A DNA stretch of 64,000 nucleotides from NCBI RefSeq assembly GCF_034347425.1, contig NZ_CP133779.1, positions 558,001 through 622,000 on the forward strand, in the 5' to 3' direction. Source of the stretch: Undibacterium sp. CCC3.4. GTDB taxonomy: Bacteria > Pseudomonadota > Gammaproteobacteria > Burkholderiales > Burkholderiaceae_D. Positions within the stretch are counted from its first letter, which is position 1. Each line of letters starts with the position of its first letter. Of this stretch, positions 37,767 through 55,068 are shown piece by piece. Made by a program: the position numbers and the translations under genes. The notes under the pieces were generated by a model. That model saw only the letters and a list, made by a program, of their open reading frames with translations, ran no database searches and was not told where the DNA came from.

Positions 37767-37833
37767 TATAGTGGATCCACATATCCGGACAACAGTTTAA
37801 ACTAGTGTCTGTCGAAAAGAGACGAGGCAGACC

Positions 37834-38127
37834 ATGAGTGAAAATAAGAGAAAAATATTTAGCGGCGCACAAAAAGCCAAGGTAGCAGTTGAGGCAATCA
37901 AAGGCGAAAAGACGATCAATCAGATCGCCCAAGAGTTCGGGGTGCATCCGACGCAGGTTAGCCAGTGGAAGAAAGAATTACTGGAAAATGCAGGCAGTCT
38001 GTTTGAAGGTAAGCGCGGTCCGAAACCGGCCAGCACACAGAACGACCCAGACCGTCTCTATGCCAAAATTGGGCAACTGAATATGGAACTCGATTGGCTT
38101 AAAAAAAAGTCAGGGATCAGCCTGTAA
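37834..38127 (+). CDS. IS copy 1 OrfA (transposase DNA-binding subunit)
   Basis: 97 residues. A helix-turn-helix of the IS3/IS911 orfA type (INQIAQEFGVHPTQVSQWK) is followed by a helix-rich end. The A8-G run at 38101-38109, near the stop, allows a -1 ribosomal frameshift into the orfB frame to make the fused OrfAB transposase, as known for this family. Confidence 0.92.
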   Translation: MSENKRKIFSGAQKAKVAVEAIKGEKTINQIAQEFGVHPTQVSQWKKELLENAGSLFEGKRGPKPASTQNDPDRLYAKIGQLNMELDWLKKKSGISL

Positions 38128-38135
38128 CGGAACGA

Positions 38136-39047
38136 TTGCAGTGGGTAGAGCCGCTCTCTGCCCTTTCAATCGCCACACAATGCCGTCTCGTTTCAGTCAC
38201 GCGCTCGGTCGTGTACGACAAGAAAAAGCGCTTGCAAGAAGAGATCAATCCGTTTGATAGTTTGCTGTTGCAATTGCTTGACGAGGAATACACCAGACAT
38301 CCATTTTACGGCACGCGACGCATGACGCATTACTTGCGAGACTGTGGCCATGCAGTGAACCGCAAGCGCGTACAGAGGCTGATGCAGCAACTGGGATTGG
38401 CAGGTATGGCCCCAGGCCCCAACACCAGTAAAGCGCATCCGCAGAACAAGATTTACCCGTACTTACTGAGAGGTATCGATGTCACTCGACCAAATATGGT
38501 CTGGAGTACAGACATCACATTCATCAGGCTGCCGCGGGGTTTTGTGTATCTGGTGGCGATCGTTGACTGGTATAGCCGGAAGGTGCTGTCTTGGCGGTTG
38601 TCGAACACGATGGATGCGGGGTTTTGCGTGGACTGCTTGGAAGAAGCCATAAAATGGTATGGAACGCCGGAGATTTTTAATACCGATCAGGGTGCGCAGT
38701 TTACCAGCCAGGCCTTTACTGGGCTGCTGCTTAGAAACGGCATCAAAATCAGTATGGACGGTCGCGGTCGGGCGTTGGATAATATTTTTGTTGAGCGTCT
38801 ATGGCGCAGTGTGAAATATGAAGAAGTGTATTTGAAAAAGCATGAAAGTATGCCGGAGTTGGTGATCGGCTTGGCGAACTATTTTATGTTCTACAACGCT
38901 GAACGTAAACATCAATCATTGGGTTATCAAACGCCGGAAACCGTGTATCGATCAGGCGTGGGCGGCGGTGCCAAGATCGTAAACAAATTTGGTACTGAAC
39001 TGCCTGATTCAAAAATGATAGAAAAGAAAAGCACGGTAGTGATGTAG
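38136..39047 (+). CDS. IS copy 1 OrfB (DDE transposase catalytic part)
   Basis: 303 residues from a TTG; the frame is open back to the slippery run, so the functional product is likely the OrfAB fusion. Catalytic triad: D in WSTDITFI, D in FNTDQGAQFTS and E in NIFVERLWRSVKYE, with the family spacing. HTH_21-like lead (FYGTRRMTHYLRD). Confidence 0.93.
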   Translation: MQWVEPLSALSIATQCRLVSVTRSVVYDKKKRLQEEINPFDSLLLQLLDEEYTRHPFYGTRRMTHYLRDCGHAVNRKRVQRLMQQLGLAGMAPGPNTSKAHPQNKIYPYLLRGIDVTRPNMVWSTDITFIRLPRGFVYLVAIVDWYSRKVLSWRLSNTMDAGFCVDCLEEAIKWYGTPEIFNTDQGAQFTSQAFTGLLLRNGIKISMDGRGRALDNIFVERLWRSVKYEEVYLKKHESMPELVIGLANYFMFYNAERKHQSLGYQTPETVYRSGVGGGAKIVNKFGTELPDSKMIEKKSTVVM

Positions 39048-39139
39048 TGCGAATAACGGGGCAGCGCCGCGCAGCTGTGGCAGAAACAGGCACTATCTTA
39101 AACTCTTTGAATAATTGTCTGGACTTAGGGGGCCACTTT

Positions 39140-41062
39140 ATGCAACCGCGTATCGAACTGGCGCATTTGCATGAATTTGAAAGGGAGGCTCAGCACTCGA
39201 TTCGTGCCGATTATCAGATTCGGGACTTTGGTTTAGATGGCGAGCGCAGTTGGCGCAGAGCCGCACCGCGTCCATTTTATTATCCGGTCACCTTTATGGA
39301 ACCGCCCATTGCATCGGCCTCTCCGGTTTTAGGATTGGATGTCTATGCGGATAAGAAGCTGCAATTGGCGATTGATGAGAGTGTGATGACGCAAAAAATC
39401 ATTGCATCAGCACCGTTTAATCTGGTCGAAGGTGGGCGCGGATATATTTTATTTAAAGCCTTGTTCAATACGTCGTCACCATCAGCTGATTATTTCACTC
39501 GGCAACAGCAGGCGACCCGTTTAGTGTCTCTGCTGATCAGTGCTAAGAATTTACTTCATGCAGATGAATTGCCGCCATCGAATATGACAATGCGGCTTTT
39601 TCACAAACAGTATCAGCCTGACGACGTAAGCGGACAGATTTACGCGTTAAATGAAATGAAGAAGTCATCGGTTGAACGGCATCTCTTACCGCTATTCACC
39701 TACGAACATGCTATTCCTAGCGAATTCCAACCGTTTTTATTTGAAACACAAAGGCAGATCGGCTGGGAAGTGTTTCGACTCTCCGGCTTGGTGGTTTCTG
39801 CCTGTGTGACCTTGTTGCTGACATTGTTAGGTGCGATGGCATTCAATTGGCGGCGCATGCAGCAAGAGGAAACGCGGCTGGCGAATGAATTATTGTATCG
39901 GGAACGGGACCGCGCTTTTGTCACGTTACGATCTATTACTGATGCGGTGATGACGCTCAATTCTGATGGTGTTGTCGAATACGTCAATCCTGCGGCAGAA
40001 GCCATTCTTCAGAAAAAACTTGCGGACATCCAAGGAAAACAAGTAACTGCGGTAATGGCCTTGAGGTATGAACTTTCCACTTCAAAAATAGTAGACCCAT
40101 TTTCTCAATGTATTGCTGATCAACGTGTCGTCGATCTTCCAGATAATGCGGTGATACAGGATAACGATGGACAGCGCAAACTGATTGAAGGGAACGTATC
40201 GCCCTTGTTTGGCAGTCAGCAGGAGTTTATCGGCGCAGTGGTTGCATTTAGAGATATGGGGCCAATACGCAAGAAAGCGCTTGAGGCCATCGAAGCTAGT
40301 GAGAAACGCTTGCGTCAGCACCAAGTAGAATTAGCTCACGTCGCTCGTTTGAATACGATGGGTGAAATGGCAGCAGGGATTGCGCACGAAATCAATCAAC
40401 CATTGGCAGCTATTCTGAGCTACAACCAAGCCTGCATTCGTATGCTGCAATCTGACGATGCGAATGATGATGAAATTATTCAGGCAATGAAATCCTCTGC
40501 GTTGCAATCAAAGAGAGCTGCCGAGATTATTACGCGCCTACGTGCATTCGTCAGTAAGAAATCATCAAAGACAGCCCCTGTCGATTTGAATCAAGTGATA
40601 CATAACGTCCTATCTCTGAGCGAGCATCATTTGAAAGATTTTCAGGTGATTACTGAAACCGAACTGATGTATGGCTTGCCAGTTGTCACGGCTGATCCGA
40701 TAGGTATGGAGCAAGTGGTTTTGAATCTGGTCAGGAATGGCATGGAAGCGATGCAGGAGTTTCCAACTGATGCCAGAATCATCCACATACAAACCGCCGT
40801 CCAAGAAAGCAGAGTCGTGCTGACGGTTCGAGATGGCGGCGCAGGTATTCCAGCAGAGGTGCTCCCGCATCTGTTTGATCCCTTCCTTACAACCAAAGAT
40901 AACGGCATGGGATTGGGACTCACTATTAGTTACTCCATTGTCGAATCTTATGGCGGAACACTATCTGCAAAAAACTTACCGCATGGCGGCGCTGAGTTTA
41001 GTTTCTCCTTAGCGATTCGTTATCCGAATATTGTTGACCTCGATTTATCTGAAAGAGAATGA
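39140..41062 (+). pseudogene. CHASE-PAS histidine kinase, 3' part (kinase core intact)
   Basis: Continuation of the gene begun at 37361. It holds the rest of the CHASE domain, a second membrane helix (LVVSACVTLLLTLLGAMAF), a PAS domain (SITDAVMTLNSDGVVEYVNPAAEAIL), the FixL-type H-box AAGIAHEINQPLAAILSY and an HATPase domain (VRDGGAGIP, NGMGLGLTISYSIVESYGG). An ATG is created across the IS/target junction at 39140-39142 in the correct frame, so a 640-residue protein lacking the first membrane helix could in principle be made. It overlaps the response regulator by ATGA. Confidence 0.85.
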
Positions 41063-41699: not shown

Positions 41700-42917
41700 A
41701 TGAATGCAAACTGGAAAAAAAATACGAAACCAGACGTTGTTCTTAAAAGAATCGAAGAATCAAAGAATGTGTCTGTTGACGGAAAGGTTTCATTTTCTGG
41801 CTTCGGATTTTTTGATGCAAAGGCAACCCTCGATGGAATGGTTGATTTTAAGGATAAATCACATTCAATTGAAATAGAAGGCGTTATTTGGACAGCTATC
41901 AGTAACGTCGCTAAAAAACAGGTACTTGAGAAGCAGAGCGTAATTGAAGAAATTAATCGTTTAATTAAGGAGGAGCGAAAGACAAAGGAAACAGAGTTTC
42001 ATGTTTTAACAACAATTTCGCTCGGTAAGCCATTTCCGTTAAAAACAATCAATACTGAAGGCTGCAAGATTACTTTCTTAAATAATTTTTTTCCAAAAAG
42101 GTATGAATCGAGGAATTCTGTAATTAGAAATAAATTTGATTTTTCTGACGATACACCTGATAGCTATAGCAAAATTATTGTATCGGTAAAGTCAAAATCT
42201 ATTAAAGGAGCTGCAACCAAGGCTTTGTATGTGATTGATATTCAACGAGCGATATGGTCACTACTTGCAAATTCAAGTACGTCGCTTTTTGGAGATGAAT
42301 GGAAGCCAATAAATAAGATACGAATGGGGCGTGTTCATACAGTCCACCAAATCAATGGGGCAGTCGCTGATGAACAATTTTGGTATGAACCGAACTTTGC
42401 AAAAGTAGATTTGTTTGTAGCGGATGATTTTGCAGGTTTTAAAAAGTTTTACAAACGAATTTTTACCAAGTTAAATCAAATTCCATATTCTTATGAATTA
42501 CGCGATGCATTGGTTCGATTTGTCCGAGCTTTAGATGAACGAGATCAGAACGTTAGCCTAATAAAGCTGTGGGGTGCACTAGAGTCCATCACATGCCAAG
42601 GTGATGCTAAATACGATTTAATAGTACGTCGATGTTCATTTCTGTTTAAAGATTCTGAATATCACCAACAAGTACTAGAGCATTTGCGGGATTTTAGAAA
42701 CAGAAGCGTTCATGCCGGAGACCAGAATGAGAATGCAAAGTTTAGGTGCTACCAACTAAAGTTCTACTTTGAACAACTTATCTTTTTCCATCTACGAAAT
42801 ACGGGGACTTTTAAAACTTTGAACGAAGCAAATCTTTTCCTTGATTCGCCAAGAGATATGACTGACTTAATCAATAAAAAACGGTTGATCGAACGTGCAA
42901 TAAAGTTTTTGTTATAA
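41700..42917 (+). CDS. HEPN-domain protein of the Apea-like type
   Basis: 405 residues, AT-rich codon use. Residues about 1-250 are a beta-rich region without recognised motifs. The C-terminal 140 residues are helical and fit Apea-like HEPN domains: LIKLWGALESITC, IVRRCSFLF and LRDFRNRSVHAGD. R333 and H338 (RNRSVH) form the Rx4H signature of HEPN ribonucleases. Such proteins occur in abortive-infection and other anti-phage systems, where they cut RNA. It follows the response regulator by 26 bp, so co-expression is possible. No antitoxin-like partner is adjacent. Confidence 0.75.
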   Translation: MNANWKKNTKPDVVLKRIEESKNVSVDGKVSFSGFGFFDAKATLDGMVDFKDKSHSIEIEGVIWTAISNVAKKQVLEKQSVIEEINRLIKEERKTKETEFHVLTTISLGKPFPLKTINTEGCKITFLNNFFPKRYESRNSVIRNKFDFSDDTPDSYSKIIVSVKSKSIKGAATKALYVIDIQRAIWSLLANSSTSLFGDEWKPINKIRMGRVHTVHQINGAVADEQFWYEPNFAKVDLFVADDFAGFKKFYKRIFTKLNQIPYSYELRDALVRFVRALDERDQNVSLIKLWGALESITCQGDAKYDLIVRRCSFLFKDSEYHQQVLEHLRDFRNRSVHAGDQNENAKFRCYQLKFYFEQLIFFHLRNTGTFKTLNEANLFLDSPRDMTDLINKKRLIERAIKFLL

Positions 42918-45768: not shown

Positions 45769-45861
45769 TAAAGTGGCCCCCTAAGTCCAGACAATTATTC
45801 AAAGAGTTTAAGATAGTGCCTGTTTCTGCCACAGCTGCGCGGCGCTGCCCCGTTATTCGCA

Positions 45862-46773
45862 CTACATCACTACCGTGCTTTTCTTTTCTATCATTTTTGA
45901 ATCAGGCAGTTCAGTACCAAATTTGTTTACGATCTTGGCACCGCCGCCCACGCCTGATCGATACACGGTTTCCGGCGTTTGATAACCCAATGATTGATGT
46001 TTACGTTCAGCGTTGTAGAACATAAAATAGTTCGCCAAGCCGATCACCAACTCCGGCATACTTTCATGCTTTTTCAAATACACTTCTTCATATTTCACAC
46101 TGCGCCATAGACGCTCAACAAAAATATTATCCAACGCCCGACCGCGACCGTCCATACTGATTTTGATGCCGTTTCTAAGCAGCAGCCCAGTAAAGGCCTG
46201 GCTGGTAAACTGCGCACCCTGATCGGTATTAAAAATCTCCGGCGTTCCATACCATTTTATGGCTTCTTCCAAGCAGTCCACGCAAAACCCCGCATCCATC
46301 GTGTTCGACAACCGCCAAGACAGCACCTTCCGGCTATACCAGTCAACGATCGCCACCAGATACACAAAACCCCGCGGCAGCCTGATGAATGTGATGTCTG
46401 TACTCCAGACCATATTTGGTCGAGTGACATCGATACCTCTCAGTAAGTACGGGTAAATCTTGTTCTGCGGATGCGCTTTACTGGTGTTGGGGCCTGGGGC
46501 CATACCTGCCAATCCCAGTTGCTGCATCAGCCTCTGTACGCGCTTGCGGTTCACTGCATGGCCACAGTCTCGCAAGTAATGCGTCATGCGTCGCGTGCCG
46601 TAAAATGGATGTCTGGTGTATTCCTCGTCAAGCAATTGCAACAGCAAACTATCAAACGGATTGATCTCTTCTTGCAAGCGCTTTTTCTTGTCGTACACGA
46701 CCGAGCGCGTGACTGAAACGAGACGGCATTGTGTGGCGATTGAAAGGGCAGAGAGCGGCTCTACCCACTGCAA
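45862..46773 (-). CDS. IS copy 2 OrfB transposase
   Basis: 303 residues, identical to copy 1 OrfB, with the complete DDE triad (WSTD, NTDQG, FVERLWR). Ends in MIEKKSTVVM. Likely made as the OrfAB fusion by frameshifting. Confidence 0.93.
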   Translation of the reverse strand: MQWVEPLSALSIATQCRLVSVTRSVVYDKKKRLQEEINPFDSLLLQLLDEEYTRHPFYGTRRMTHYLRDCGHAVNRKRVQRLMQQLGLAGMAPGPNTSKAHPQNKIYPYLLRGIDVTRPNMVWSTDITFIRLPRGFVYLVAIVDWYSRKVLSWRLSNTMDAGFCVDCLEEAIKWYGTPEIFNTDQGAQFTSQAFTGLLLRNGIKISMDGRGRALDNIFVERLWRSVKYEEVYLKKHESMPELVIGLANYFMFYNAERKHQSLGYQTPETVYRSGVGGGAKIVNKFGTELPDSKMIEKKSTVVM

Positions 46774-46781
46774 TCGTTCCG

Positions 46782-47075
46782 TTACAGGCTGATCCCTGAC
46801 TTTTTTTTAAGCCAATCGAGTTCCATATTCAGTTGCCCAATTTTGGCATAGAGACGGTCTGGGTCGTTCTGTGTGCTGGCCGGTTTCGGACCGCGCTTAC
46901 CTTCAAACAGACTGCCTGCATTTTCCAGTAATTCTTTCTTCCACTGGCTAACCTGCGTCGGATGCACCCCGAACTCTTGGGCGATCTGATTGATCGTCTT
47001 TTCGCCTTTGATTGCCTCAACTGCTACCTTGGCTTTTTGTGCGCCGCTAAATATTTTTCTCTTATTTTCACTCAT
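46782..47075 (-). CDS. IS copy 2 OrfA
   Basis: 97 residues, identical to copy 1 OrfA, including the helix-turn-helix and the A8-G slippery run near the 3' end. Confidence 0.92.
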   Translation of the reverse strand: MSENKRKIFSGAQKAKVAVEAIKGEKTINQIAQEFGVHPTQVSQWKKELLENAGSLFEGKRGPKPASTQNDPDRLYAKIGQLNMELDWLKKKSGISL

Positions 47076-47145
47076 GGTCTGCCTCGTCTCTTTTCGACAG
47101 ACACTAGTTTAAACTGTTGTCCGGATATGTGGATCCACTATAATC

Positions 47146-48121: not shown

Positions 48122-49359
48122 ATGGGAATCGTCCAAGTAACCGCAAAAAAAGATTTTCTTGAATCAATAACATCTTCTCGTCCGATAGCGGCTTTGGCTG
48201 AATTAATTTGGAATGGATTTGATGCGGCCTCGAACAAAGTGGAGGTCTTCCTTGATATTAACGAAATGAATGGTCTTGAATCCGTTCGTGTACGAGATTA
48301 CGGTGACGGTATAACGTTCTCTAAAGTCGACAAATTGTTTGGTAGTTTAGGCGACTCGTGGAAGAAAGCTGCTGTTCGCCAACATGGACGTTCATTACAT
48401 GGAAAAAATGGAAAAGGCAGATTTAAGGCATTTTCTTTAGGCCATAAGGTTGAGTGGGCTACGACATTTAAAGAAAATGGGAAATCGCACTCATACAAAA
48501 TTGTTGGCAATTCAACATCCCTTGATAATTTTAATGTTGGTAAAGTTGTAGAGGTCGATACGAATGTAAGTGGAACTGAAGTTACCATACACAATGTAGT
48601 TAGTGATTTTCGGTCACTAAAAGATGAAACTGCTCAAATGAGTTTGGCGAAAATATTTGCGGTGTTTCTTACTGAATATCCTGAAACCTCAATTGAGTAT
48701 GATGGGAAAAATGTAGACCCTAATGCAGTTCAGCACCATCGAGAAGAGTATGACCTTGGCGAAATTGGACTTAATAGCGGTAATAGAGTACGTGTTTCGA
48801 TAGTTGTTATTGAATGGAATATTCCTACTGAACGTGTTGTTCATTTGTGTGATGCGTCAGGAATCTCATTGTTTGAAACTCCTGCGGGTCAACAAATTCG
48901 TGCACCGGGCTTTAATTTTACTGCGTATATAAAATCTGATCATTTTCGTGAGTTAGATAAGTTGGGCCAATTGGCACTTGCAGATTTGCATGATGATGTT
49001 CAGGTTATTGTGCGTGCGGCAAAAAATAAAATGAAAGAGCACTTTAGAAAACGTTTGGCTTCTCAACATAGCCAGATTGTTGAAAAGTGGAAAGAAGAAA
49101 AAATTTATCCTTATGAAGACAACGATAATATTGATCCTGTCGAATTTGCAGAGCGACAGGTTTTCGATATTTTGGCTGTTAACGTACAAAGTTATTTACC
49201 TTCTTTTGAAGACTCTGATAGTAAACAAAAGAAGTTCACTTTCTTTTTGCTTGCCCAGGCAATTCGTCAAAATCCTGATTCCGTGCAATTTATTATCGGC
49301 GAAGTGCTTGGTTTAAAGAAAGAGGCTCAAGATGATCTAGCTTTACTGCTAGAAAAAAC
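48122..49359 (+). pseudogene. GHKL-ATPase/PD-(D/E)XK nuclease fusion, 5' part cut by an IS copy
   Basis: 412 codons plus two bases, from the ATG at 48122 (an in-frame start at 48074 is possible). A GHKL (Hsp90/MutL/MORC-like) ATPase: E27, N31 and D34 in ALAELIWNGFDA (Bergerat N-box), D59-x-G61-x-G63 in RDYGDGIT, and the glycine lid HGKNGKGRF at 93-101. After it comes an S5-like transducer region and a charged helix (KNKMKEHFRKRLASQHSQIVEKWKEEK). Removing IS copy 3 and one AAC duplicate joins it in frame with 50737-51484 to give 661 residues. As it stands, only the ATPase half could be made, with a short IS-derived tail. Confidence 0.85.
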
Positions 49360-49426
49360 TATAGTGGATCCACATATCCGGACAACAGTTTAAACTAGTG
49401 TCTGTCGAAAAGAGACGAGGCAGACC

Positions 49427-49720
49427 ATGAGTGAAAATAAGAGAAAAATATTTAGCGGCGCACAAAAAGCCAAGGTGGCAGTTGAGGCGATCAAAGGCGA
49501 AAAGACGATCAATCAGATCGCCCAAGAGTTCGGGGTGCATCCGACGCAGGTCAGCCAGTGGAAGAAAGAATTACTGGAAAATGCAGGCAGTCTGTTTGAA
49601 GGTAAACGCGGTCCGAAACCGGCCAGCACACAGAACGACCCAGACCGTCTCTATGCCAAAATTGGGCAACTGAATATGGAACTCGATTGGCTTAAAAAAA
49701 AGTCAGGGATCAGCCTGTAA
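49427..49720 (+). CDS. IS copy 3 OrfA
   Basis: 97 residues, the same protein as in the other full copies; slippery A8-G run at 49694-49702. Confidence 0.92.
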   Translation: MSENKRKIFSGAQKAKVAVEAIKGEKTINQIAQEFGVHPTQVSQWKKELLENAGSLFEGKRGPKPASTQNDPDRLYAKIGQLNMELDWLKKKSGISL

Positions 49721-49728
49721 CGGTACGA

Positions 49729-50640
49729 TTGCAGTGGGTAGAGCCGCTCTCTGCCCTTTCAATCGCCACACAATGCCGTCTCGTTTCAGTCACGCGCTCG
49801 GTCGTGTACGACAAGAAAAAGCGCTTGCAGGAAGAGATCAATCCGTTTGATAGTTTGCTGTTGCAATTGCTTGACGAGGAATACACCAGACATCCATTTT
49901 ACGGCACGCGACGCATGACGCATTACTTGCGAGACTGTGGCCATACAGTGAACCGAAAGCGCGTACAGAGGCTGATGCAGCAACTGGGATTGGCAGGTAT
50001 GGCCCCAGGCCCCAACACCAGTAAAGCGCATCCGCAGAACAAGATTTACCCGTACTTACTGAGAGGTATCGACGTCACTCGACCAAATATGGTCTGGAGT
50101 ACAGACATCACATTCATCAGGCTGCCGCGGGGTTTTGTCTATCTGGTGGCGATCGTTGACTGGTACAGCCGGAAGGTGCTGTCCTGGCGGTTGTCGAACA
50201 CGATGGATGCGGGGTTTTGCGTGGACTGCTTGGAAGAAGCCATAAAATGGTATGGAACGCCGGAGATTTTTAATACCGATCAGGGTGCGCAGTTTACCAG
50301 CCAGGCCTTTACTGGGCTGCTGCTTAGAAACGGCATCAAAATCAGTATGGACGGTCGCGGTCGGGCGCTGGATAATATTTTTGTTGAGCGCTTATGGCGC
50401 AGTGTGAAATATGAAGAAGTGTATTTGAAAAAGCATGAAAGTATGCCGGAATTGGTGATCGGCTTGGCGAACTATTTTATGTTCTACAACGCTGAGCGTA
50501 AACATCAATCATTGGGTTATCAAACGCCGGAAACCGTGTATGGCTCAGGCGTGGGCGGCGGTGCCAAGATCGTAAACAAATTTGGTACTGAACTGCCTGA
50601 TTCAAAAAAGCTAGAAAAGAAAAGCACGGTAGTGATGTAG
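49729..50640 (+). CDS. IS copy 3 OrfB transposase
   Basis: 303 residues with the DDE triad intact. Small differences from copy 1: T for A in GHTVNRK, G for R in VYGSGV, and KKLEKK for KMIEKK near the C-terminus. Confidence 0.93.
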   Translation: MQWVEPLSALSIATQCRLVSVTRSVVYDKKKRLQEEINPFDSLLLQLLDEEYTRHPFYGTRRMTHYLRDCGHTVNRKRVQRLMQQLGLAGMAPGPNTSKAHPQNKIYPYLLRGIDVTRPNMVWSTDITFIRLPRGFVYLVAIVDWYSRKVLSWRLSNTMDAGFCVDCLEEAIKWYGTPEIFNTDQGAQFTSQAFTGLLLRNGIKISMDGRGRALDNIFVERLWRSVKYEEVYLKKHESMPELVIGLANYFMFYNAERKHQSLGYQTPETVYGSGVGGGAKIVNKFGTELPDSKKLEKKSTVVM

Positions 50641-50736
50641 TGCGAATAACGGGGCAGCGCCGCGCAGCTGTGGCAGAAACAGGCACTATCTTAAACTCTT
50701 TGGATAATTGTCTGGACTTAGGGGGCCACTTTAAAC

Positions 50737-51484
50737 ATCACTTTCCTCGATCATCAGTTCCGCAAAAATTGTTGCAAATAGACTGGATATGTTGAATGGA
50801 TTAGAGGCGCTTATTTTTCATAAGAAAAGTAAGAAGAAACTGTTGGAAAGAGATCAATTACATAAAATACTTGAAACAGAGGCTTGGTTATTTCACGAAG
50901 AATTCTCTCTGGCAGGTAGCGAGCAGCGGTTAGAAGAAGTTTTGCAAAGGCATTTATCTGAATTAGGTCCACGTGAAGATGATTCTAAAATTGTTGATCT
51001 AGGAGATGGGAAGACTGGGCGGATAGATCTGATGTTGCAAAAAGTTGTCCAACCTCGAACTGGTGAATATGATTATCTAATTGTTGAGCTCAAGCGACCT
51101 TCACAAAAAATCAATAGCGATGTACTAACCCAAATAAAAAAATATGCTATCGCAGTTGCAAGTGACGAAAGATTTGCTGGAGTTCCTGCTAAATGGACAT
51201 TCGTCGCTGTGTCAAATGAGCTGGACTCTTTTGCAAAGAAAGAGGCCAATCAGAAGGGACGACCTAAAGGACAAGTTTATGACGACTCAGAATTGAATAT
51301 TACGGTCTGGGTAAAAGAATGGGCAGAGGTAATTAACGATGCACGATCTCGTCTTCGATTTATTAATGAACAATTGTCTTATGAGGCGGATAGGGATAGT
51401 GCTAAAGCCTATTTACAAAGAGCGCACGCGAAGTTTATTCCTAATCTTTCTGACGACGATACAGATGTCGATTTGCCCAATTAA
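50737..51484 (+). pseudogene. GHKL-ATPase/PD-(D/E)XK nuclease fusion, 3' part (nuclease domain)
   Basis: Completes the gene begun at 48122. In the restored numbering, D510 (TGRIDLML), E530 and K532 (LIVELKRP) and Q545 (LTQIKKYA) form the D-ExK-Q pattern of PD-(D/E)XK nucleases. A helical linker (KKLLERDQLHKILETEAWLFHEEFSLAG) precedes it. An ATG at 50789 could start a free-standing 231-residue nuclease domain, but no ribosome site of note is seen. The PIN gene starts 14 bp after its stop, so both were one operon. Confidence 0.85.
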
Positions 51485-51498
51485 TTTCTAAAAAAATT

Positions 51499-51849
51499 AT
51501 GTCTTCAGAAGAATACGCAGAAATTAGGTTGCGAATTGCCCAAAAAAAGATTTCAGCAATTACCGTCGATACAACAACTTTTGATGATCACGGCATGCGT
51601 CTCGATCGAGGGATATTTTCTCAGCTAAAACAATTTAATCGGCATCCTGCAAATTTGGTTATTTCGGAAGTAGTTTTAAGGGAAATTGGTCGTCATCTGA
51701 CAAAATCGATCACAACAAAAAAAGAACGATTTGGTCGTGATATGTCTGATGCGGCTGATTTTGTTGGATTTGATCAAAAGTACCTCGAAGAGATAAATAC
51801 AAAATTTGCAGAACTGCCATCTCCGCAAGAAATTTGCAAATTGCAGATC
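51499..51849 (+). pseudogene. PIN-domain protein, 5' part cut by an IS copy
   Basis: 117 codons. It holds the first PIN-domain strand with D24 (ISAITVDTTTF) and the second acidic helix (LVISEVVLREIGRHL, E57/E62). Removing IS copy 4 and one ATC duplicate joins codon 117 (I) to D118 at 53227 in frame, restoring 384 residues. On its own the fragment lacks half of the active site. Confidence 0.82.
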
Positions 51850-51942
51850 TAAAGTGGCCCCCTAAGTCCAGACAATTATTCAAAGAGTTTAAGATAGTGC
51901 CTGTTTCTGCCACAGCTGCGCGGCGCTGCCCCGTTATTCGCA

Positions 51943-52854
51943 CTACATCACTACCGTGCTTTTCTTTTCTAGCTTTTTTGAATCAGGCAGTTCAGTACCA
52001 AATTTGTTTACGATCTTGGCACCGCCGCCCACGCCTGAGCCATACACGGTTTCCGGCGTTTGATAACCCAATGATTGATGTTTACGTTCAGCGTTGTAGA
52101 ACATAAAATAGTTCGCCAAGCCGATCACCAACTCCGGCATACTTTCATGCTTTTTCAAATACACTTCTTCATATTTCACACTGCGCCATAGACGCTCAAC
52201 AAAAATATTATCCAACGCCCGACCGCGACCGTCCATACTGATTTTGATGCCGTTTCTAAGCAGCAGCCCAGTAAAGGCCTGGCTGGTAAACTGCGCACCC
52301 TGATCGGTATTAAAAATCTCCGGCGTTCCATACCATTTTATGGCTTCTTCCAAGCAGTCCACGCAAAACCCCGCATCCATCGTGTTCGACAACCGCCAAG
52401 ACAGCACCTTCCGGCTATACCAGTCAACGATCGCCACCAGATACACAAAACCCCGCGGCAGCCTGATGAATGTGATGTCTGTACTCCAGACCATATTTGG
52501 TCGAGTGACATCGATACCTCTCAGTAAGTACGGGTAAATCTTGTTCTGCGGATGCGCTTTACTGGTGTTGGGGCCTGGGGCCATACCTGCCAATCCCAGT
52601 TGCTGCATCAGCCTCTGTACGCGCTTGCGGTTCACTGCATGGCCACAGTCTCGCAAGTAATGCGTCATGCGTCGCGTGCCGTAAAATGGATGTCTGGTGT
52701 ATTCCTCGTCAAGCAATTGCAACAGCAAACTATCAAACGGATTGATCTCTTCTTGCAAGCGCTTTTTCTTGTCGTACACGACCGAGCGCGTGACTGAAAC
52801 GAGACGGCATTGTGTGGCGATTGAAAGGGCAGAGAGCGGCTCTACCCACTGCAA
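51943..52854 (-). CDS. IS copy 4 OrfB transposase
   Basis: 303 residues, DDE triad intact; C-terminus KKLEKKSTVVM as in copy 3. Confidence 0.93.
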   Translation of the reverse strand: MQWVEPLSALSIATQCRLVSVTRSVVYDKKKRLQEEINPFDSLLLQLLDEEYTRHPFYGTRRMTHYLRDCGHAVNRKRVQRLMQQLGLAGMAPGPNTSKAHPQNKIYPYLLRGIDVTRPNMVWSTDITFIRLPRGFVYLVAIVDWYSRKVLSWRLSNTMDAGFCVDCLEEAIKWYGTPEIFNTDQGAQFTSQAFTGLLLRNGIKISMDGRGRALDNIFVERLWRSVKYEEVYLKKHESMPELVIGLANYFMFYNAERKHQSLGYQTPETVYGSGVGGGAKIVNKFGTELPDSKKLEKKSTVVM

Positions 52855-52862
52855 TCGTTCCG

Positions 52863-53156
52863 TTACAGGCTGATCCCTGACTTTTTTTTAAGCCAATCGA
52901 GTTCCATATTCAGTTGCCCAATTTTGGCATAGAGACGGTCTGGGTCGTTCTGTGTGCTGGCCGGTTTCGGACCGCGCTTACCTTCAAACAGACTGCCTGC
53001 ATTTTCCAGTAATTCTTTCTTCCACTGGCTAACCTGCGTCGGATGCACCCCGAACTCTTGGGCGATCTGATTGATCGTCTTTTCGCCTTTGATTGCCTCA
53101 ACTGCTACCTTGGCTTTTTGTGCGCCGCTAAATATTTTTCTCTTATTTTCACTCAT
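52863..53156 (-). CDS. IS copy 4 OrfA
   Basis: 97 residues, identical to the OrfA of copies 1 and 2; A8-G slippery run near the 3' end. Confidence 0.92.
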   Translation of the reverse strand: MSENKRKIFSGAQKAKVAVEAIKGEKTINQIAQEFGVHPTQVSQWKKELLENAGSLFEGKRGPKPASTQNDPDRLYAKIGQLNMELDWLKKKSGISL

Positions 53157-53226
53157 GGTCTGCCTCGTCTCTTTTCGACAGACACTAGTTTAAACTGTTG
53201 TCCGGATATGTGGATCCACTATAATC

Positions 53227-54030
53227 GACAGTTTTTTAGCAGATTCTGGTACCTTAGTTTTGAACTCCGATGACTATATTAATGTCAGTGACCTTCTCAG
53301 TAGTTACTTTGGTAATGAACCCCCGTTTCAGAAGGAAAATAACAAAAAATCTGAGTTTCCAGACGCAATTGCGTTAAAGACCCTTGAAAATTGGGCGTTA
53401 GATGAGGATACCGAAATAGTTGTTGTATCCAGAGACGGTGATTGGATATCGTATTGTGAAATATCCGATAGGTTGCATCATGTAAAAGAACTTGCAACTG
53501 CGCTTGCACTTTTTCAAACACCGGACGAGGCCGTCCAACATATGATTAAGGGTCTGCGACGAGACTTAAATGATGGAAACTCGAAAATTTTCTTAAGGAT
53601 TGAAGAGGAAATTAAAGACTTCGAATGGAGCGAAGCTGTTATCAGTGATGTTTATTCACAATTTGAATATGAAGAAGATGAGTTTTATGTTGAGTTGAAT
53701 AAATGTACATTTGAAGATGTGCCAAATGCCATTAAAGTTACTGATATTGATCAGGAGGGAGTCTCTGTAATTTTTAGTCTCCAAGTGCAAGGTACATTTA
53801 TTGGAAGTTATTCATTTCAGAAATGGGATGGAATTGATAAAGAATATATTTCTATGGGAAACGGTCTAGTCACGGATAATTTCGATGAATCGGTTTCTAT
53901 TGTTTTGCGTATTCCTAACAAATCAAATGAAGTAGATGATATTGAGCTTGAAATAGAACCAAATACATTGCATTTTGAATTTGGTGAGATAGAACCTGAT
54001 TGGATGAGTGGACGAGATAATGTTGATTAA
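53227..54030 (+). pseudogene. PIN-domain protein, 3' part
   Basis: Completes the gene begun at 51499. D163 (SEFPDAIALKTLENWA) and D187/D189 (VVVSRDGDW) are the third and fourth acidic sites of a PIN_8/DUF4935-like domain. After it comes a region of about 190 residues (LRRDLNDGNSKIFLRIEEEIKDFEW, then beta-rich) of unknown fold and strongly acidic character. A TTG at 53260 is the only start-like codon near the IS, so it is probably not expressed. Confidence 0.82.
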
Positions 54031-54680: not shown

Positions 54681-54974
54681 TTAAGTCTCAGAATGTAAAA
54701 CCAGCCACTCGCGCATGGCCTCGTTTACACGAGTCTGCCAGCCGCGCCCGCTAGCCTTCAAGGCTACCAGCACGTCTTGGTCAAAGCGGATCGTTGTCGC
54801 CACTTTGGGCGCAAGCTTCACACTGCCGACTGGACGACCACGCCGCCGAACCTCAATTTGCTCCGGCCTGGTTTTTCGCCCCTCCCCTCGTAGCCCGTCA
54901 TCAATGCTCCGCAGCAAAGCTGCCTCGAATTCGAGCATTTCCGGATCGATCGCTGGCTTATTTCGTCTTGTCAT
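54681..54974 (-). CDS. BrnA/DUF4415-type antitoxin
   Basis: 97 residues from the ATG at 54974. The C-terminal part is the ribbon-helix-helix of the family: RGRPVGS, then KVATTIRFDQDVLVALKASGRGWQTRVNEAMREWL. It would neutralise a toxin and repress its own operon. The gene start overlaps the decayed end of a RelE-like toxin frame, so it appears to be an orphan antitoxin left after the toxin was destroyed. Confidence 0.85.
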   Translation of the reverse strand: MTRRNKPAIDPEMLEFEAALLRSIDDGLRGEGRKTRPEQIEVRRRGRPVGSVKLAPKVATTIRFDQDVLVALKASGRGWQTRVNEAMREWLVLHSET

Positions 54975-55068
54975 CAAATTTTTCCTTCACCTTCAGTAAA
55001 AACTCTGGTCGCTAATTGTCGAATTTCGCCTTTGCGTAAACCAGCAACAACACGATTTCACCGCTCAA
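54958..55068 (-). pseudogene. Decayed 3' end of a RelE-like toxin gene
   Basis: The reverse frame reads SGEIVLLLVYAKAKFDN, a stop (TAG at 55014-55012), then RPEFLLKVKEKFDDKTK and a TAA at 54960-54958. This matches the last helix and strand of RelE-family toxins (..LLLIYAKxxxDNLPxxFLKxLKEE..) with one nonsense codon. The upstream part is replaced by transposon-like sequence. The 17-nt overlap with the antitoxin gene is as in intact toxin-antitoxin operons. Confidence 0.6.

What the first reader, a model, noticed from the sequence alone, without database searches (positions are those of the whole stretch)
48122..54030. Two-gene GHKL ATPase-PD-(D/E)XK nuclease plus PIN nuclease module, silenced by two IS copies
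When IS copies 3 and 4 and one 3-bp duplicate each are removed, two adjacent genes 14 bp apart appear. The first (661 aa) has a Bergerat-fold ATPase (E27, N31, D34; DYGDG; GKNGKG) and a C-terminal D-ExK-Q nuclease (D510, E530, K532, Q545). The second (384 aa) has a PIN_8/DUF4935-like nuclease with an acidic C-terminal region. GHKL ATPases of the MutL/MORC type linked to nucleases are known from restriction-like systems, but I do not recognise this ATPase-nuclease fusion paired with a PIN protein as a named defence system. An ATP-gated DNA nuclease with an RNA-cutting effector is a reasonable hypothesis.
Basis: partly seen in the sequence, partly recalled or inferred. Interest (0 to 1): 0.82.

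Follow-up and report, generated by a model that had tools for sequence, protein, structure and literature searches.

The report
Broken phage-defence nuclease plus RNA-cutter
Two neighbouring genes, both cut by copies of the same jumping element, look like a known type of ATP-driven DNA-cutting phage-defence protein followed by a probable RNA-cutting protein; the first is a known kind that usually works alone, and the pairing is rare but turns up elsewhere.

Summary
In detail: two adjacent genes, 14 bp apart, are each cut by a 1374-bp IS3-like element with 3-bp duplications.

Gene A is a GHKL ATPase fused to a PD-(D/E)XK nuclease. That architecture is in print (paraMORC3, 2008), and one such fusion, VcSduA, was shown in 2025 to block phages. 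A's family is widespread and mostly solo. Gene B is a PIN_12 nuclease with a C-terminal beta domain, also mostly solo.

Pairing is rare. Of 135 non-redundant A-family frames, one (L087) has a PIN gene 15 bp behind it, with an in-frame stop. One PIN gene (L173) follows a GHKL-nuclease of another clade. The two A-family pairs lie apart in the tree.

Best reading: A was a self-sufficient ATP-gated restriction factor; B is a separate, optional RNase cassette. "Two-gene module" is only partly supported. The loss looks recent: 24 near-full-length IS copies at 98-100% identity, catalytic codons still in place.

The parts
48122..49359 (+). gene A, first piece: GHKL ATPase and following domain, residues 1-412
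   Evidence: PF13589 E 3.6e-13; E27, N31, D34, D59 codons
49360..50733 (+). IS3-like element copy inside gene A, AAC duplication
   Evidence: transposase with rve domain
50737..51484 (+). gene A, second piece: PD-(D/E)XK nuclease half
   Evidence: weak PF08011 and PF13588; D 51026, E 51086, K 51092, Q 51131, Y 51143; 53-57% identity to intact relatives L012 and L013
51499..51849 (+). gene B, first piece: N-terminal part of a PIN domain
   Evidence: PF16289 E 1.3e-8; acids at 51568 and 51682
51850..53223 (-). IS3-like element copy inside gene B, ATC duplication
53227..54030 (+). gene B, second piece: rest of the PIN domain and C-terminal beta domain
   Evidence: PF16289 E 7.6e-12 for 53260-54030; acids at 53362, 53434, 53440; beta domain from the model of a homologue

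Best explanation
Gene A was an ATP-gated DNA endonuclease of the paraMORC3 (GHKL-nuclease) kind, acquired horizontally and sufficient on its own. By analogy with VcSduA and with MORC and MutL, a dimer would close its N-terminal ATPase clamp on invading DNA or a DNA-bound complex, and ATP binding or hydrolysis would license the C-terminal PD-(D/E)XK domain to cut (inferred; dimerisation and DNA cutting are not shown for this family). Gene B, starting 14 bp on, was a PIN ribonuclease cassette that mostly occurs alone and has been placed behind GHKL-nucleases a few times; here it was at most an optional add-on (inferred). Both genes are now interrupted by recent insertions of one expanding IS (shown).
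For: GHKL motifs and the nuclease D-ExK-Q-Y are invariant in 64 of 64 aligned relatives. 64 of 64 hit HATPase_c_3 and 54 of 64 HSDR_N_2 at E<=1. Model of the L087 homologue: GHKL plus S5 like MORC2 and MORC3; elements 461-468, 502-510, 519-526, 535-550, 559-567 fit PD-(D/E)XK order. A is mostly solo: a co-directional downstream gene within 60 bp in 19 of 105 non-redundant loci, with no recurrent family seen by eye. It sits on plasmids beside RM, DRT2 and Abi genes, in viral contigs and in a Pasteurella phage tail module. Precedent: VcSduA protects, needs E27 and K557, and the culture survives. B: PIN fold and invariant acids; a one-protein PIN defence system without an antitoxin, DS-3, is reported. 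B's relatives are also mostly solo: an upstream co-directional gene within 60 bp in 8 of 36, downstream in 7 of 36.
Against: A's relatives do not match SduA_C (PF14082): window pieces at E<=1, 11 intact relatives at E<=0.1; so the VcSduA analogy rests on architecture. No activity or phage data exist for this family here. Genes more than 6 kb from A also hit defence models, so enrichment near A is not shown. A role in DNA repair or plasmid conflict is not excluded. The repeated pairing at L087 and L173 speaks for a closer tie than 'optional'.
Confidence: 0.6

Rival explanations
1. A and B act together: A is the ATP-gated DNA cutter and B a second, RNA-cutting layer triggered by A or by its failure.
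For: Same order and strand with short gaps in the window, at L087 (15 bp) and, with another GHKL-nuclease clade, at L173 (120 bp). In the A tree the window and L087 need two changes, and none of 200 bootstrap trees joins them.
Against: 1 of 135 A-family frames, 1 of 7 second-clade frames and 1 of 53 PIN frames are paired; sister genes of L087 (L036, L053, L079) have none; four plasmid relatives of the L173 ATPase have no PIN neighbour annotated or found.
Confidence: 0.28
2. A and B are an obligate two-gene system.
For: 14-bp spacing in the window and 15 bp at L087.
Against: Most A-family and PIN genes lack the other; B was found in 2 of 80 genomes of the kept A loci.
Confidence: 0.06
3. A is not a defence gene but a DNA-repair or plasmid-competition nuclease of the MutL/MORC kind.
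For: MutL and MORC are the best sequence matches among solved structures; plasmid-borne relatives are frequent.
Against: Patchy spread (9 of 369 class genomes, own included), carriage by prophages and phages, VcSduA precedent.
Confidence: 0.15

Closest known systems
paraMORC3 family (Iyer, Abhiman and Aravind 2008, PMC2292703; parts 1-2 of 4 and passages read)
   Same: N-terminal GHKL plus S5 domain, C-terminal restriction-endonuclease-fold domain with an acidic-ExK signature; a subset standalone; spread by transfer
   Different: No member sequence was named in the text read, so the filing rests on architecture; the text read mentions no PIN partner
VcSduA, called Shedu type I-D (PMC12137116; passages read)
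   Same: GHKL ATPase with Glu at position 27, then a PD-(D/E)XK nuclease; protects alone
   Different: VcSduA's nuclease is assigned to DUF4263; A's relatives are matched by HSDR_N_2 instead. No direct sequence comparison was made. hhalign of A's C-terminus with a rough SduA_C-locus alignment: probability 85%, 76 columns
BbrUII/HgiDII-type restriction enzymes (NCBIfam NF050001)
   Same: GHKL region similar: E 2e-15 for L011 and L087
   Different: 56 bits against a cut-off of 550; best stretch is the GHKL part; no hit listed for L012 and L013
PHROG 6203 (phage proteins of unknown function)
   Same: near full-length match, E 3e-151 for the Pasteurella phage Pmp14 protein
   Different: no function recorded
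PIN_12 (PF16289) proteins; defence PIN protein DS-3 (PMC13092281; passages read)
   Same: PIN nuclease; DS-3 has no antitoxin gene
   Different: homology of B to DS-3 was not tested; B has an added beta domain

Membership tests
paraMORC3 (gene A) | GHKL ATPase with intact motifs | tested here: met
   E27, N31, D34, D59, G61, G63, G98, G100 invariant in 64 of 64 relatives; the window has E27, N31, D34, D59
paraMORC3 (gene A) | S5-fold domain after the GHKL domain | tested here: met
paraMORC3 (gene A) | C-terminal RE-fold nuclease with E-D-ExK | tested here: met
   E441, D504, E525-x-K527 invariant in 64 of 64, element order in the model. That part was not searched alone against solved structures; E441 as the first E is my assignment
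paraMORC3 (gene A) | direct homology to a named 2008 member | not tested
   no member sequence at hand
Shedu (gene A) | SduA_C / DUF4263 nuclease domain (PF14082) | tested here: not met
   absent at E<=1 for the window pieces and at E<=0.1 for 11 intact relatives; not among the 25 families shown of 52 for 64 relatives. Profile-profile similarity weak, 85%
MORC proper (gene A) | GhXhhpXXRhl motif in the S5 domain | not tested
   motif known only
PIN_12 (gene B) | PF16289 match above the curated cut-off | tested here: met
   35.8 and 46.4 bits against 32 for the two pieces; 78-122 bits for four relatives
PIN fold (gene B) | PIN fold with conserved acidic residues | tested here: met
VapBC-type toxin-antitoxin (gene B) | small antitoxin gene next to the PIN gene | tested here: inconclusive
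   gene A lies 14 bp upstream; no ORF of 80 aa or more between the end of B and 54179, but smaller antitoxin genes were not searched
a named defence system held by PADLOC | hit to a PADLOC-DB model | tested here: not met
   no family at E<=1 for the A pieces and the second B piece; first B piece 17 bits to CARF_PIN, E 5.8e-4. Intact A relatives hit REase_II or Cas4 models weakly. The library is of 2023

The most novel reading that the evidence does not exclude
A PIN_12 ribonuclease is a transferable second effector that GHKL-nuclease ATPases of at least two clades have picked up separately, giving a two-layer immune system: an ATP-gated DNA cutter first, and RNA cleavage that stops the cell if the first layer fails.
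Probability: 0.28. Interest if true: 0.68.

Novelty: new variant of a known kind. Interest (0 to 1): 0.4.

Why it matters
The ATPase-nuclease belongs to a large, little-studied family (347 confirmed relatives in one genome scan, 80 kept; PHROG 6203 in phages) for which VcSduA is the nearest tested model by architecture. If the PIN add-on works with it, GHKL-nuclease immunity would have a modular second layer joining DNA cutting to RNA cleavage. Interruption by IS in 3 of 11 plasmid loci viewed, besides the window, also makes the cost of keeping such a nuclease a testable question.

Tried and rejected
The two protein-database searches could not be made: the shared database is switched off. The single-sequence scan of genome contigs found no relative; the alignment scan then found 347. 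Among 98 near relatives of the genome, 8 (own included) match at E<=0.001, the best other at 2.5e-6. The PDB sequence search with the B alignment found nothing at E<=1. The nuclease domain of A and the beta domain of B were not folded alone (both fold jobs used), so nothing is claimed on their nearest solved folds; no Shedu structure is among the rows shown, but the GHKL domain filled those lists. PADLOC census: 135 of 157 eligible genes within 2 kb of A in 34 loci against 150 of 185 genes beyond 6 kb; 176 against 73 families hit at E<=1e-10, but one gene can hit many models and counts per gene are not given, so no enrichment is claimed. Four of five plasmid relatives of the L173 ATPase seen at 49% identity or more... 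all four fetched have no PIN neighbour by annotation or HMM. Rejected: A as a Shedu member by domain; an obligate pair. Tiamat as a name for A is a recalled lead, not tested; the Tiamat passages read give no domain detail. Literature searches (open-licence PMC texts only) that showed me no GHKL-PIN system. Papers: PMC2292703 parts 1-2 of 4 and passages; PMC12137116, PMC3710099, PMC7824862, PMC13092281, PMC12629846 passages only; others listings only. In one search the Shedu alignment used open frames from 11 of 15 loci, some probably in the wrong frame (L228, L233).

Full report
Observation. The window holds two adjacent genes on the + strand, each interrupted by a 1374-bp element: 49360-50733 in gene A and 51850-53223 in gene B, with a third copy at 45769-47142. 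It encodes a transposase with an rve integrase core and makes 3-bp duplications (AAC, ATC, ATC), which I read as the IS3 family (from general knowledge). The genome search listed 37 matches, 24 of them full length or within 2 bp at 98-100% identity, so the insertions look recent. The A and B pieces have GC 0.36-0.39 against 0.519 for the window, which suggests horizontal acquisition. I left the inserts in place and searched the pieces apart.

Is the pair real? Across the 390 loci then held I counted 135 non-redundant (90%) A-family frames of 450 aa or more, 7 of a second GHKL-nuclease clade, and 53 non-redundant PIN frames of 300 aa or more; the broken window genes and the L087 PIN fall below these lengths. 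Adjacent pairs outside the window: L087 (Rhodospirillales MAG; A, then B 15 bp later, B with an in-frame TAG) and L173 (viral contig; a 713-aa protein with GHKL-like and nuclease-like motifs, Pfam matches below cut-off, GHKL similarity 96% by hhalign, then PIN 120 bp later). L149 has both, 4.6 kb apart on opposite strands. No plasmid record with A is among the 60 listed of 63 with B, compared by eye. B was found in 2 of 80 genomes of the kept A loci, one being L087, against 3 of 321 class genomes, own included. On the A tree the window and L087 need two changes, and none of 200 bootstrap trees joins them; one old gain with many losses is not excluded. L087's sister genes (L036, L053, L079) have no PIN within the held flank. 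So the pairing is rare and labile, but repeated in the same order and strand.

Context. A is mostly solo: a co-directional downstream gene within 60 bp in 19 of 105 non-redundant loci, upstream in 19 of 104, with no recurrent family seen by eye. Defence genes are nearby in several viewed plasmids: a type ISP RM gene overlapping it in Phaeobacter, DRT2 and an LlaMI-type RM pair in Psychrobacter, an abortive-infection gene in Bradyrhizobium; and an SduA_C protein lies about 750 bp away in G109. Other viewed loci show no defence neighbour (for example). Whether this exceeds background was not shown.

Known or new. Iyer et al. 2008 described paraMORC3: GHKL, S5 and a C-terminal restriction-endonuclease-fold domain, a subset of it standalone without conserved neighbours. 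The 2025 paper shows that VcSduA, of similar architecture and called by its authors paraMORC3-like and Shedu type I-D, protects against phages, needs Glu27 and Lys557, and spares the culture. Gene A meets the architectural features but not the SduA_C domain test, so I file it as paraMORC3-like and working like VcSduA, not as a Shedu member. I saw no PIN partner for such proteins in the papers searched (open-licence texts only).

Mechanism. Shown: domain content, invariant residues, IS interruption, rare repeated pairing. Inferred: ATP-driven clamp closure that licenses DNA cutting by A; RNA cleavage by B as an optional second layer. In the window the pieces remain as stop-to-stop frames of 443, 249, 132 and 278 codons; whether they make protein is unknown.

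Noticed in passing
L009, L017, L021 (plasmids of Sinorhizobium meliloti, Methylobacterium, Paracoccus yeei): Relatives of gene A are also interrupted or cut short by IS elements (IS21, IS5, IS3) in or near the nuclease half: 3 of 11 plasmid loci viewed, two of the 11 being unannotated, besides the window.
   Followed up: partly
window 54681-54977 (-): A BrnA-type antitoxin (PF14384 E 1.4e-18) lies just past gene B; the BrnT partner was not looked for.
   Followed up: no
window 41700-42917 (+): A 405-aa protein with only weak Pfam hits (DUF4145 E 0.048, RHH_4 E 0.009); by eye its C-terminus looks HEPN-like, so it may be another defence gene.
   Followed up: no
window 37767-39140 (+) and the ORF at 39047-41062: Another full-length copy of the same IS (converted from genome coordinates) ends at the start of a sensor-kinase ORF whose first residues come from the IS end, so that gene is probably cut short as well.
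   Followed up: no
L013 6001-7959 (Pasteurella phage Pmp14): A gene A relative sits as cargo among tail genes, upstream of the tape-measure gene, in a phage genome.
   Followed up: no
L250 1740-7378 (Sphingomonas morindae plasmid p1): A UvrD-type helicase, a second-clade GHKL-nuclease and a restriction endonuclease follow each other on one strand, a possible three-gene defence run.
   Followed up: no
L087 5873-5875: The PIN gene of the only other A-family pair carries an in-frame TAG, so both A-family pairs found have a broken PIN gene; the MAG sequence could be in error.
   Followed up: partly
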